A DNA stretch of 63,711 bases, taken from Lachnospiraceae bacterium. Lineage in GTDB: Bacteria > Bacillota > Clostridia > Lachnospirales > Lachnospiraceae. The notes beneath the pieces were generated by a model. The model saw only the letters and a program-made list of their open reading frames with translations. It was not told where the DNA came from and did no database searches. A program made the translations under genes and the position numbers. The stretch is from positions 1-63,711 of the forward strand of contig JAFTXD010000019.1 of NCBI GenBank assembly GCA_017461775.1, in the 5' to 3' direction. Every line of letters begins with the position of its first letter. The stretch's first letter is position 1. Of this stretch, positions 8,606 through 41,073 are shown one piece after another.

Positions 8606-8655
8606 TCCGGTTAACAGTTTATAAACGAATAGTGTGAACAAACCATAAAGCGAAG

Positions 8656-8681
8656 AACCGGGGATTTCCCCGGTTTCTTTG
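8656..8681 (+). terminator. Intrinsic terminator after flagellin
   Basis: AACCGGGG (8656-8663), loop ATTT, CCCCGGTT (8668-8675), followed by TCTTTG. Confidence 0.8.
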
Positions 8682-8721: not shown

Positions 8722-8750
8722 TTGACGTAATGTGTTAAGTATGCTAAACT
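8722..8750 (+). promoter_or_regulatory. Promoter of the first Rpn-family locus
   Basis: TTGACG (8722-8727), a 17-base spacer and TAAACT (8745-8750). Transcription would begin near 8757 and give a leader of about 139 nt. Confidence 0.65.
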
Positions 8751-8756
8751 ATACTC

Positions 8757-8895
8757 AAAAGTGAAGTCTTGGTCCTGTCTGGCAGCATCGCTGCATTCTA
8801 TGACAATTCTGTCGCAGCTTGGGAGTCCTGCATAATCACGAGAAAATACAATATGCAGGAGCGGTGTTGGCCTCCTGTGGAATAGGAGGCTGTGT
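8757..8895 (+). ncRNA. Structured leader RNA of the first Rpn-family gene (copy A)
   Basis: Successive hairpins are visible: GCAG/CTGC at 8782-8794; TGAC-AATTCT-GTCG at 8801-8814; a 9-bp stem TCCTGCATA/TATGCAGGA at 8826-8860; and GCCTCCT (8870-8876) with AGGAGGC (8884-8890), which buries the Shine-Dalgarno AGGAGG of the gene starting at 8896. CTCCTG at 8872-8877 can instead pair with CAGGAG at 8856-8861, so the ribosome site could be opened by refolding. The first two hairpins recur upstream of the second Rpn-family gene at 39875-39918, with a compensatory change in one base pair. I do not recognise it as a named riboswitch. Confidence 0.55.
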
Positions 8896-9744
8896 ATGTC
8901 ACAGGAGAAGAAGACTATCTTAGATGGTCTGAATTTGGTGGATAAATTTTTGTTTGATGAAGCCATTGCGGATAAAGAGGTATTTGAAGCAATTGCGTCC
9001 ATAGTCACGGCAGAGCGTGTGGTGTTGAAGGAATCTCCTCATGTGGAGAAGGAGGAGGGTATATCCCCGGAGCTTCGAACCATCCGGCTGGATGTGTTTG
9101 GTACCACAGAGGAGGAAAGACTCCTGCTTATGGAAATGCAGAAGAAAAATACCTATAACATCCCCAAGCGGAGCCGTTACTATTTGGGGATGACGGATGT
9201 ATCCTTACTGTCGCCGGGAGAGGCAGATTTTAATAAATTAAATGATGTCTGTTTGGTGTTTATTGCACCTTTTGACATTTTTGGCAGAGGACTGTACCGT
9301 TATACCTTTGAGGGTGTCTGCCGGGAGTGCCCGGATTTAAAGCTAAACGATGGGGCACTTAGGATATTTATCAATACCAAGGGAAAGAATAGAGAGGATT
9401 TTTCACAAGAATTTCTGGATTTTTGTGATTATGTAACGGAAAGTAGCGATGAGGTTGTAGCGCGAAGCGAAAGTGAGAAGATGAAAAAGAATCATCACCG
9501 CGTGAAAGAGATTCGTGCAGCAGAGAAGATGGGGGTAAATGCTATGCAGAGATGGGAAGAACTCGCGTATGCGAAGGATGAAGGTCGTGCAGAGGGGCGT
9601 GCCGTAGGGTTGGAGTTAGGTCTTAAAAGTCTGGTAAATATGGCAAAGGCATTTTGTAGTGACTTTGAAACAATATACAGAATGGTGATTGGGAATGAAG
9701 GCTACGAAAATGTCACAAGAGAGCATGTAATGAAATATTTATAA
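8896..9744 (+). CDS. Rpn-family PD-(D/E)XK nuclease (transposase-like)
   Basis: Rpn proteins are PD-(D/E)XK endonucleases that stimulate recombination and are often annotated as putative transposases. The 282-residue protein has the family opening DGLNLVDKFLFDEAIADKEVFEAI, the active-site pattern IRLDVF...LLLMEMQ (Asp, then E-x-Q) near residues 65-85, and IPKRSRYY, VCLVFIAPFDIFG and ALRIFINTKG. The C-terminal third is helical and charged. The start ATG 8896 follows AGGAGG by six bases, but that site lies inside a hairpin of the leader. Downstream is an unrelated peptidase gene with its own start signals. Activity is unproven; the substrate is unknown. Confidence 0.82.
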   Translation: MSQEKKTILDGLNLVDKFLFDEAIADKEVFEAIASIVTAERVVLKESPHVEKEEGISPELRTIRLDVFGTTEEERLLLMEMQKKNTYNIPKRSRYYLGMTDVSLLSPGEADFNKLNDVCLVFIAPFDIFGRGLYRYTFEGVCRECPDLKLNDGALRIFINTKGKNREDFSQEFLDFCDYVTESSDEVVARSESEKMKKNHHRVKEIRAAEKMGVNAMQRWEELAYAKDEGRAEGRAVGLELGLKSLVNMAKAFCSDFETIYRMVIGNEGYENVTREHVMKYL

Positions 9745-39814: not shown

Positions 39815-39843
39815 TTGACATAAATTGTACTGTATGGTATATT
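39815..39843 (+). promoter_or_regulatory. Promoter of the second Rpn-family locus
   Basis: TTGACA (39815-39820), 17-base spacer, TATATT (39838-39843). Confidence 0.75.
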
Positions 39844-39849
39844 ATACGA

Positions 39850-39984
39850 GTGTGAAGATCTGTAAACAAATCATGCAGTGTATCTGCGTTCTACAATTTT
39901 TCTATGGCGATTCTGCCGTGTGTCAGGGAACCCCTGCGTGTTTCACAAGATTATAGAGCGGGGCTGACCGCGGAAAGGATGAAT
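39850..39984 (+). ncRNA. Structured leader RNA of the second Rpn-family gene (copy B)
   Basis: The leader shares order, spacing and sequence with the one at 8757-8895: a 13-base hairpin GCAG...CTGC (39875-39887), TTCTA, then TGGC-GATTCT-GCCG (39905-39918). In the other copy that stem is TGAC/GTCG, so the A-T pair has become G-C: a compensatory change. A longer stem follows: GTCAG (39922-39926), CCCC (39931-39934) and GC with GC-GGGG-CTGAC (39958-39968). The gene's ribosome site GGAAAGG lies directly after it. Not a riboswitch class I recognise. Confidence 0.55.
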
Positions 39985-41073
39985 ATGAAAAGAGATTTGG
40001 TGGATTATGAATATCTATCGGATAATTTGCGTTATGCAGATTTATTTAATGGAGTACTTTTTGGAGGAGAAGAGGTTGTTACGGCGGAGAAACTGAAAGG
40101 GGAAGATACCAAATTGTCAGTAGTCTCTGACGATACGAGGAAAGGAAGATATAGGGATGTAATCCGTAAGTATGAAGGGGATATGAATTATGCCGTTCTT
40201 GGCGTGGAGAACCAGGAGGCAGTGGATTATACCATGCCCTTTCGGATTATGGAATATGAAGTAGGAGAGTATTCCAGACAGATTGCAGGTATCAGAAAAC
40301 AGCATCACCAGCTTGGGGATGTGCATGGGCAAGAGTATCTTTGTAAATTTAGGAAAGATGACAAAATTCACCCATGCATTACCCTTGTGCTTTTCTGGGG
40401 GGAAGACTGGGACGGAGCAAAAAGTATAAAAGAGATGATGAATCTGAAGGATATACCAGCTGCATTTCGGGATTATGTGAACGATTATCCTATGCATTTG
40501 GTGAATGTACGGGAGTTTGAGGATACCAGTGTGTTTAAGACGGATTTAAAGTTAGTATTCGATTTTATGAAGCATACCAAGGATAGAGCAGGGATGCGTT
40601 CGCTTTTATTAGGGAATGATGATTATAGAAAAGTGTCTCGAGACGCATATGAGGTAATGCGTGTGCATACAAATCTGGATGAATTAGATAAGTTTATGAA
40701 GGATAACACAGAGGAAGAAGAGGAGGAAGTAGATATGTGTCAGGCGATTAGAGAGATTATTGCGGAGGAGTGTGAACTGGCGAAGGCTCAGGCAATAAAG
40801 GAAGGCTTAGCACAGGGGATTGAGCAGGGAATTGAACAGGGAATTGAGCAGGGAATTGCACAGGGAATTGCACAAGGAATTGCACAAGGAATTGCGCAGG
40901 GAATGGAAAAAGGAATTGCTGAAGGAAGAAGTGCAGGAATTCTTTTACACACTTATCGAATGGTAGAGCGTGGTAAATTGAGTGTAGCAGAAGCACTGGA
41001 GGATTTGAATGATTCTAAGTCGGAAAGTGAATTCATTGAGGGAATGTTGGCGGCAGGGTATAGGTTACCGTAA
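39985..41073 (+). CDS. Rpn-family PD-(D/E)XK nuclease (transposase-like), second type
   Basis: A 362-residue protein of the recombination-promoting nuclease/putative transposase superfamily. It begins MKRDLVDYEYLSDNLRYADLFNGVLFGG; the nuclease-type residues are RDVIRKY and LGVENQE (Asp, then E-x-Q) near residues 50-80, followed by MPFRIMEYEVGEYSRQI and ITLVLFWG. The C-terminal part carries a run of tetrapeptide repeats (GIEQ, GIAQ) from about 275 to 310, encoded by a 12-bp tandem repeat. I place the start at ATG 39985, six bases after GGAAAGG; ATG 39979 would touch the ribosome site, and codons upstream belong to the leader RNA. Confidence 0.82.
   Translation: MKRDLVDYEYLSDNLRYADLFNGVLFGGEEVVTAEKLKGEDTKLSVVSDDTRKGRYRDVIRKYEGDMNYAVLGVENQEAVDYTMPFRIMEYEVGEYSRQIAGIRKQHHQLGDVHGQEYLCKFRKDDKIHPCITLVLFWGEDWDGAKSIKEMMNLKDIPAAFRDYVNDYPMHLVNVREFEDTSVFKTDLKLVFDFMKHTKDRAGMRSLLLGNDDYRKVSRDAYEVMRVHTNLDELDKFMKDNTEEEEEEVDMCQAIREIIAEECELAKAQAIKEGLAQGIEQGIEQGIEQGIAQGIAQGIAQGIAQGMEKGIAEGRSAGILLHTYRMVERGKLSVAEALEDLNDSKSESEFIEGMLAAGYRLP
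40807..40914 (+). repeat. In-frame 12-bp tandem repeat coding GI[EA]Q units
   Basis: About eight copies of a GG(A/G)ATTG(A/C)(A/G)CA(A/G)G-type 12-mer lie in the Rpn-family gene. Each codes Gly-Ile-Glu/Ala-Gln; the first block has Glu and the second Ala. Such arrays change length by slippage without a frameshift. Confidence 0.85.

What the first reader, a model, noticed from the sequence alone, without database searches (positions are those of the whole stretch)
8757..8895. Homologous structured leader RNA shared by two distant Rpn-family loci
Leaders at 8757-8895 and 39850-39984 share a 13-base GCAG...CTGC hairpin, TTCTA, and an RATTCT-loop hairpin whose stem is TGAC/GTCG in one and TGGC/GCCG in the other, a compensatory A-T to G-C change. 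The two downstream proteins belong to the same broad nuclease/transposase superfamily but are different in sequence. A common RNA element before such genes could be a regulator or a guide-like part of the element.
Basis: partly seen in the sequence, partly recalled or inferred. Interest (0 to 1): 0.75.

Follow-up and report, generated by a model that had tools for sequence, protein, structure and literature searches.

The report
Shared RNA switch before nuclease toxins
Two unrelated-looking DNA-cutting nuclease genes in a gut bacterium start with the same folded messenger-RNA leader, which looks like an uncharacterised on/off switch for making such nucleases; related leaders precede similar genes in neighbouring species.

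Summary
A model built without leader A (8757-8895) finds A, and a core model finds 11 copies in 138 genus genomes: 4 here, 7 in a sister species. All 11 lie directly before Rpn-family (PD-(D/E)XK) genes of two sequence-unrelated types. P2 and P3 carry compensatory changes. No Rfam family reaches its threshold.

The leader runs from a sigma-70-type promoter to the Shine-Dalgarno and folds as P1(P2,P3,P4)-P5. Segment 2 (CCTGC) can pair with segment 3 (GCAGG), which also pairs with segment 4 of P5; segment 4 can mask the ribosome site. I read it as a translational switch restraining a nuclease toxin until a signal arrives; switching and signal are unproven.

Other leaders of similar layout precede 60 of 82 sampled B-type homologues by loose patterns (clean controls 0 of 36); in one class the alternative helix covaries.

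Limits: the window's leader is rare (no further genome among 397 of the family); 35 of 46 sampled A-type homologues match no pattern; a related class precedes Uma2 nucleases, so it is not Rpn-specific. Guide-RNA reading: unsupported.

The parts
8722..8750 (+). promoter-like site TTGACG-17-TAAACT of leader A
   Evidence: 9 of 12 matches; 0.9 expected in shuffles of the region; TTGACA, 17 bases and a TATATT-like hexamer precede the other window-type leaders
8757..8895 (+). leader RNA A
   Evidence: found by model R1 built without it; R2, which includes it
8761..8839 (+). P1 closing helix GTGA 8761-8764 / TCAC 8836-8839
   Evidence: alignment A6, (A has a gap at one P1 column); pairs counted
8782..8794 (+). 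P2 hairpin GCAG/CTGC
8801..8814 (+). P3 hairpin TGAC-AATTCT-GTCG
8826..8834 (+). segment 2 TCCTGCATA, pairs with segment 3 in the alternative fold
8852..8861 (+). segment 3 TATGCAGGAG (5' side of P5)
8870..8878 (+). segment 4 GCCTCCTGT: pairs with segment 3 (P5) or with the Shine-Dalgarno
8884..8890 (+). Shine-Dalgarno AGGAGGC, masked by segment 4 in the minimum-energy fold
8896..9744 (+). A-type Rpn nuclease, 282 aa (TIGR01784; PDDEXK_2)
39815..39843 (+). promoter-like site TTGACA-17-TATATT of leader B
   Evidence: 11 of 12
39849..39984 (+). leader RNA B
39852..39946 (+). P1 GTGAAG 39852-39857 / TTTCAC 39941-39946
39875..39887 (+). P2 hairpin
39905..39918 (+). P3 hairpin TGGC-GATTCT-GCCG
39924..39937 (+). 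P4 CAGGG/CCCTG; its 3' side with C39937 is segment 2
39958..39971 (+). P5: segment 3 GCGGGG 39958-39963, segment 4 CCGC 39968-39971
39985..41073 (+). B-type Rpn/YhgA-like protein with a GIxQ-repeat tail
40721..41073 (+). probable internal start for an RpnS-like small protein: AGGAGGA 40721-40727, in-frame ATG 40735
   Evidence: sequence; by analogy with PMC10327210; inference

Best explanation
A cis-acting translational switch in the 5' leader of Rpn-type nuclease (toxin) mRNAs. Transcription starts at P1. In one state the upstream helices P1-P4 and the ribosome-proximal hairpin P5 form. In the other state segment 2 (3' side of P4 here; 3' side of P3 or P1 in other classes) pairs with segment 3 (5' side of P5), which frees segment 4 to pair with the Shine-Dalgarno and block translation of the full-length nuclease. 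The RNA is proposed to hold the toxin off until a signal (metabolite, protein, trans RNA or stress) favours the upstream fold. Shown: homology, location, P2/P3 compensatory changes, alternative-helix covariation in class II, complementarity to the Shine-Dalgarno above shuffles. Inferred: the transcription start, the switching itself, its direction, the signal.
For: (1) 11 of 11 R2 hits in 138 genus genomes lie directly before Rpn genes. (2) P1-P4: 95.9% of 219 cells form standard pairs, 3 pairs have compensatory changes, 6 double-changed cells (0 of 500 shuffles reach 6; 28 of 500 reach 3 pairs); RNAalifold predicts P1, P2, P3 and P4 itself. (3) Identity falls from 72% in the leader core to 49% in the promoter spacer and 38% upstream (10 leaders). 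(4) The minimum-energy fold holds the 2:3 pairing in 10 of 10 window-type leaders when the first 9 coding bases are included, and in 8 of 10 for the leader alone. (5) A segment 2-3-4 triple of 7 bp or more anywhere in the scanned stretch: 38 of 82 B-type leaders, 1-4 of 82 in shuffles, 4 of 36 clean control genes, Fisher P 1.6e-4. (6) Class II: the CCAY/RTGG pair is standard in 23 of 24 leaders (13 CG, 6 UA, 4 UG), reached by 6 of 5000 shuffles; swap test over 49 B-type leaders 2 of 5000. (7) Complementarity to the Shine-Dalgarno exceeds shuffles in window-type, class II and class III leaders (P 0.001, 0.0004, 0.0014), not in clean controls (P 0.73). (8) No + strand terminator-like site in either leader.
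Against: No expression data. In one search a slid control (+2 columns) gave more double changes (5 pairs, 8 cells) than the structure, though only 41.6% of its cells paired, and further pair types did not exceed shuffles (497 of 500 reach the count), so covariation within the window-type set is thin. The swap test gives no signal within the window-type set (2529 of 5000; it tested the P3 side, not the P4 segment). Direct P3-to-start-site pairing is not significant (window-type 582 of 5000; class IV 487; class II 2752). Two of 10 leaders (C21, L058) prefer the other fold when folded without coding bases. In A the 3:4 fold costs about 11 kcal/mol over the alternative (the larger gap came from a mis-registered constraint), so A may be off without help. 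Complementarity to the Shine-Dalgarno is not significant in the P3-other group (P 0.12). In this genome only 4 of 12 Rpn-type loci have the leader, so the nuclease does not need it. Relatedness of the sequences inflates shuffle-based counts.
Confidence: 0.6

Rival explanations
1. A constitutive translation-damping leader: the structure only keeps expression of a toxic nuclease low and senses nothing.
For: The minimum-energy fold already has the 2:3 pairing in 8 to 10 of 10 window-type leaders; Rpn nucleases are toxic when overexpressed (PMC10327210); sequences differ between classes, unlike a ligand-binding core.
Against: The conserved two-partner layout (2:3 against 3:4) and P2/P3 are more than is needed for simple masking.
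Confidence: 0.22
2. The leader is bound by a protein, possibly the nuclease itself or its RpnS antitoxin, for autoregulation (this could also be the trigger of the switch, so it overlaps with the best explanation).
For: All 11 window-type copies sit on nuclease mRNAs; P3 is conserved in stem and loop; B has a likely internal RpnS start.
Against: The same leader precedes A- and B-type proteins without meaningful sequence similarity, and a related class precedes Uma2 and one HtrA-like gene, so a self-binding protein would have to share the site across families.
Confidence: 0.12
3. Recent gene duplication or promoter capture: the leader is shared only because copies are young, with no function in the RNA.
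For: Close relatives only (2 of 138 genus genomes; none further in 397 family genomes); two tandem copies 1.2 kb apart in G032; 2 of 11 copies precede broken genes (L058, L073).
Against: The core is conserved while spacer and flank are not; compensatory changes; P3 leaders recur before homologues in many species of the genus.
Confidence: 0.08
4. A guide-like or transposon-end RNA/DNA element of the nuclease, comparable with omega-RNA of IscB (recalled).
For: Structured RNA directly before a nuclease annotated as a transposase.
Against: Only loops and a short linker vary in the alignment, no repeats flank the unit, the RNA pairs with the gene's own ribosome site, and PMC10327210 finds no evidence that rpn genes transpose by themselves.
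Confidence: 0.03

Closest known systems
Translational attenuators and translational riboswitches (general layout, recalled)
   Same: 5' leader, two mutually exclusive folds, masking of the Shine-Dalgarno in one of them
   Different: No known ligand, no Rfam match at threshold, no strongly conserved aptamer sequence shared by the classes
Rpn toxin-antitoxin systems (RpnL/RpnS; PMC10327210, preprint)
   Same: Same nuclease families, C-terminal repeat tails, probable internal RpnS start in B, multi-copy and tandem genes
   Different: That paper describes control by RpnS; its main text has 0 occurrences of leader, UTR or untranslated. The RNA leader would be an additional layer
DUF3800-I to XI RNA motifs (recalled, Weinberg et al. 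2017; paper not held)
   Same: Several unlike structured leaders in front of one nuclease-like protein family
   Different: Different protein family; I could not compare sequences, and no Rfam family reached threshold in the leaders tested
omega-RNA / HEARO of IscB (recalled)
   Same: Structured RNA upstream of a nuclease gene
   Different: No guide region seen, not part of a recognisable transposon, contiguous with the ribosome site

Membership tests
Rfam RNA families | covariance-model score at or above the gathering threshold | tested here: not met
   window (3 hits, all tRNA); 18 related loci (3 hits, none in a leader). Leader A region at E up to 10 gave 3 matches far below their gathering scores; leader B was tested at threshold only
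Metabolite riboswitch | conserved ligand-binding core across distant species | tested here: not met
   R2 hits only 2 of 138 genus genomes and only G000 among 397 family genomes, with filters that can lose weak matches; R3 does not score the window-type leaders
Metabolite riboswitch | ligand binding | not testable with these tools
   needs in-line probing
Translational switch / attenuator | mutually exclusive pairings of a middle segment | tested here: met
   predicted folds
Translational switch / attenuator | one fold masks the ribosome-binding site | tested here: met
   complementarity to the Shine-Dalgarno above shuffles in window-type, class II and class III leaders; seen as a predicted fold for A; P3-other group not significant
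Translational switch / attenuator | regulated change of translation | not testable with these tools
   needs reporter assay
Transcription attenuator | intrinsic terminator before the gene | tested here: not met
   0 on the + strand in either leader (2 on the - strand at 8651-8675, outside leader A)
Guide RNA of a transposon nuclease (omega-RNA-like) | variable guide segment and mobile-element ends | tested here: not met
   alignment A6 varies only in loops and linkers; no repeats flank the unit
Type III toxin-antitoxin RNA | tandem-repeat RNA antitoxin separated from the toxin by a terminator (recalled) | tested here: not met
   A only: no tandem repeats, no + strand terminator
Rpn nuclease family (proteins) | match to curated models | tested here: met
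   A over cut-off in Pfam PF12784 and NCBIfam TIGR01784; B below PF04754's cut-off alone, 21.1 bits with neighbouring stretches, and no Rpn model in NCBIfam

The most novel reading that the evidence does not exclude
An undescribed superfamily of RNA switches that gates PD-(D/E)XK toxin/defence nucleases. The promoter-leader module is exchanged between unrelated nuclease families (A-type Rpn, B-type Rpn, Uma2), and its trigger is a phage or stress signal, so the RNA would be an infection sensor controlling toxin translation.
Probability: 0.2. Interest if true: 0.85.

Novelty: new variant of a known kind. Interest (0 to 1): 0.62.

Why it matters
Rpn genes are widespread and toxic, and their known control is the internal RpnS protein; the authors of PMC10327210 noted that RpnL:RpnS ratios vary for unknown reasons and suggested additional regulation. 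A leader that decides whether the full-length nuclease is translated would supply such a layer and give a concrete reporter with which to look for the trigger. The leader also occurs before nuclease types without meaningful sequence similarity, which suggests that a regulatory RNA module is reused across nuclease families.

Tried and rejected
Guide RNA, transposon end, transcription attenuator and type III RNA antitoxin were considered and rejected.

Conserved upstream ORF: P3 of B reads ATGGCGATTCTGCCG, but L074 and L075 have GTAGAC there, so a conserved uORF is rejected.

Direct pairing of P3 with the ribosome site, suggested by several minimum-energy folds, is not supported statistically.

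Wider occurrence: one exact-pattern scan of the 84,980-species collection gave 5 stretches: 3 on contigs of one Lachnospiraceae MAG (the sister species) and 2 in a Gemmataceae and a Limisphaerales MAG, taken as chance and not examined. The IMG/VR protein query matched 6 stretches, none a relative. The class II pattern in IMG/VR gave 11 stretches, of which R3 supported none (best E 0.71).

R1 also gave 8 single weak hits in other genus genomes at E 0.0014-0.09. Read by eye, 7 of them lay by genes that did not look like Rpn and were often only a P5-like hairpin; the eighth, L065, precedes a PDDEXK_2 protein (TIGR01784 below its cut-off).

The first control set contained 17 Rpn genes; it was cleaned from 53 to 36. 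One search misplaced the L073 row; one search repeats the count without it. In one search the forced 3:4 pairing of A was out of register; one search corrects it. Three of 132 fetched upstream regions were dropped as too short and one leader was left out for runs of N. The class patterns are rough: L243 looks like class III by eye but counts as none.

Full report
OBSERVATION. Both leaders are as described. Neither is exceptionally stable alone (z -0.96 and -1.28), so chance had to be excluded by comparison. In the whole 2.9 Mb assembly (82% complete) the pattern GCAGNNNNNCTGCNTTCTA has 3 exact matches: A, B and one at C77 before a protein 68% identical to B. A fourth copy, at C21, also precedes a B-like gene.

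MODEL TEST. R1 was built from B, C77 and C21, with A left out. It finds A at 22.9 bits. In 121 genus genomes it scores strongly only in this genome and in G032, which has 7 copies; 8 other genomes have one weak hit each. G032 appears to be the public Lachnospiraceae MAG RGIG4572, by the spacing of two copies. R2, the core model from all 11 sequences, hits 2 of 138 genus genomes with 11 matches and, among 397 genomes of the family, only this genome; both searches used filters that can lose weak matches. All 11 lie directly before Rpn homologues: 7 B-type and 4 A-type. Two of these genes are damaged: L058 carries a stop and L073 lacks its N-terminal part. In this genome 4 of 12 Rpn-type loci, two of them C-terminal pieces only, have the leader.

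STRUCTURE. The leader starts 6-8 bases after a TTGACA-17-TATATT-like promoter in 10 leaders. P1 closes P2, P3 and P4; P5 sits just before the Shine-Dalgarno. Of 219 cells, 95.9% pair; P2 has two and P3 one pair with compensatory changes. Against this, one slid control showed more double changes (8 cells against 6) though only 41.6% of its cells paired, so the covariation is real but thin. RNAalifold recovers P1-P4 and extends P2. The core is 72% identical between leaders against 49% for the promoter spacer and 38% upstream (10 leaders), so the leader itself is under constraint.

PROTEINS. A is an Rpn family nuclease (TIGR01784, 63.8 bits; PDDEXK_2, 29.1 bits). B is YhgA-like (Transposase_31), below the cut-off alone and 21.1 bits with neighbouring stretches. 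They show no meaningful BLASTP similarity. B has a strong Shine-Dalgarno and an in-frame ATG at 40735, as expected for an RpnS-like small protein (sequence; inference).

OTHER LEADERS. The upstream regions of 129 further homologues from the genus were read (52, 77 of 80). They are a sample: I took the better-scoring matches that start near the N-terminus from the capped lists. A strict P3 pattern occurs in 32 of 83 B-type leaders against 0.15 in shuffles, and in 0 of 46 A-type leaders; a looser one in 49 of 82 and 5 of 46. With loose patterns the 82 readable B-type leaders fall into class II (25, GAGTAA...TTACTC with P2 and P3), class III (11, AAAGCA...TGCTTT), other P3 leaders (24) and none (22). 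The A-type leaders are class III (8), other P3 (3, possibly chance) and none (35). The 36 clean controls have neither pattern. R2 run over 37 of these loci gave 9 hits at E up to 5; all 9 are sense-strand P3 sites in the leader, the best with E 0.011. Leader A itself aligns with leaders L331 and L243 of G082, which look like class III (scores 42 and 38; shuffled maximum 37 in 1000), a suggestive bridge. Strictly, R3 (class II) does not score the window-type leaders, so common descent of the classes is not proved.

SWITCH. Segment 3 (5' side of P5) is complementary both to segment 4 and to an upstream segment 2. Triples of at least 7 bp occur in 38 of 82 B-type leaders (1-4 in shuffles), 10 of 46 A-type (0-3), 4 of 10 window-type (0-1), and 4 of 36 clean controls; the scan accepts any position, and some listed triples lie outside the proposed segments. 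The minimum-energy fold of the window-type leaders holds 2:3 in 10 of 10 with nine coding bases and in 8 of 10 without. In class II the CCAY/RTGG pair, which mainly serves 2:3, is standard in 23 of 24 leaders with CG, UA and UG types (6 of 5000 shuffles reach this; a 25th leader, L302, lacked the motif). The swap test gives 2 of 5000 in 49 B-type leaders but no signal in the window-type set. Complementarity to the Shine-Dalgarno exceeds shuffles in window-type, II and III, but not in P3-other, in Rpn leaders matching no pattern, or in controls. In A the fold places GCCTCCT on AGGAGGC.

SPECIFICITY. R3 found 11 hits in 3 of 397 family genomes. Of four in G069, two are seeds of the model and precede Rpn homologues; the other two precede an Rpn start and an Rpn remnant by eye. 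Of seven in another genus, six precede Uma2 (5 confirmed by Pfam; the sixth, L353, is closely similar by eye) and one precedes an HtrA-like protease. So the module is associated with PD-(D/E)XK nucleases more widely and is not exclusive.

LITERATURE. PMC10327210 (part 1 of 4 of the text and searched passages): Rpn are toxin-antitoxin, anti-phage nucleases; differing RpnL:RpnS ratios suggest additional regulation; leader, UTR and untranslated do not occur. PMC8632094 and PMC11109978 were searched for terms in the main text only: no occurrence of Rpn or PDDEXK. Of other papers I saw listings only. The searches that paired Rpn with RNA terms held 0, 2 and 1 papers, none on such a leader by title; the Uma2 search listed 8 of 835, none of the 8 holding Uma2. 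The library lacks most subscription papers, so novelty rests on these searches and Rfam.

VERDICT. The trigger and the switching itself remain to be shown.

Noticed in passing
L352, L353, L355, L356, L358, L361 (genus g84, genomes G220 and G529): Class II leaders precede Uma2 nucleases; L361 and L356 carry, by eye, an Rpn-like tail of EG-rich repeats, suggesting that Uma2 nucleases may also have a small-protein tail.
   Followed up: partly
L360:1501-2994: Class II leader core lies before an HtrA-like trypsin/PDZ gene without an evident segment 4, perhaps a leftover leader captured by another gene.
   Followed up: partly
L032 (G000:C121:30306-30464) and L033 (G000:C142:13153-13338): C-terminal-only relatives of the A-type protein, like stand-alone RpnS antitoxins; the C142 copy has a TTGACA promoter-like site and a CCCCTGCG...GCGGGG leader tail resembling leader B.
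   Followed up: no
window 40817-40950: Tandem GGAATTGAGCAG/GGAATTGCACAG-like repeats encode a GIxQ-repeat helix, similar to the variable four-residue repeats of Rpn tails reported in PMC10327210.
   Followed up: no
L214-L217, L220, L240, L281, L291, L292, L313, L314 (B-type); L244-L249, L331, L332 (A-type): Class III leaders (AAAGCA...TGCTTT) occur before both A- and B-type Rpn genes, so leader class does not follow protein type.
   Followed up: partly
L226/L246 (G085:C97:121300-123285): A B-type and an A-type Rpn gene stand back to back, each with its own leader class (II and III).
   Followed up: no
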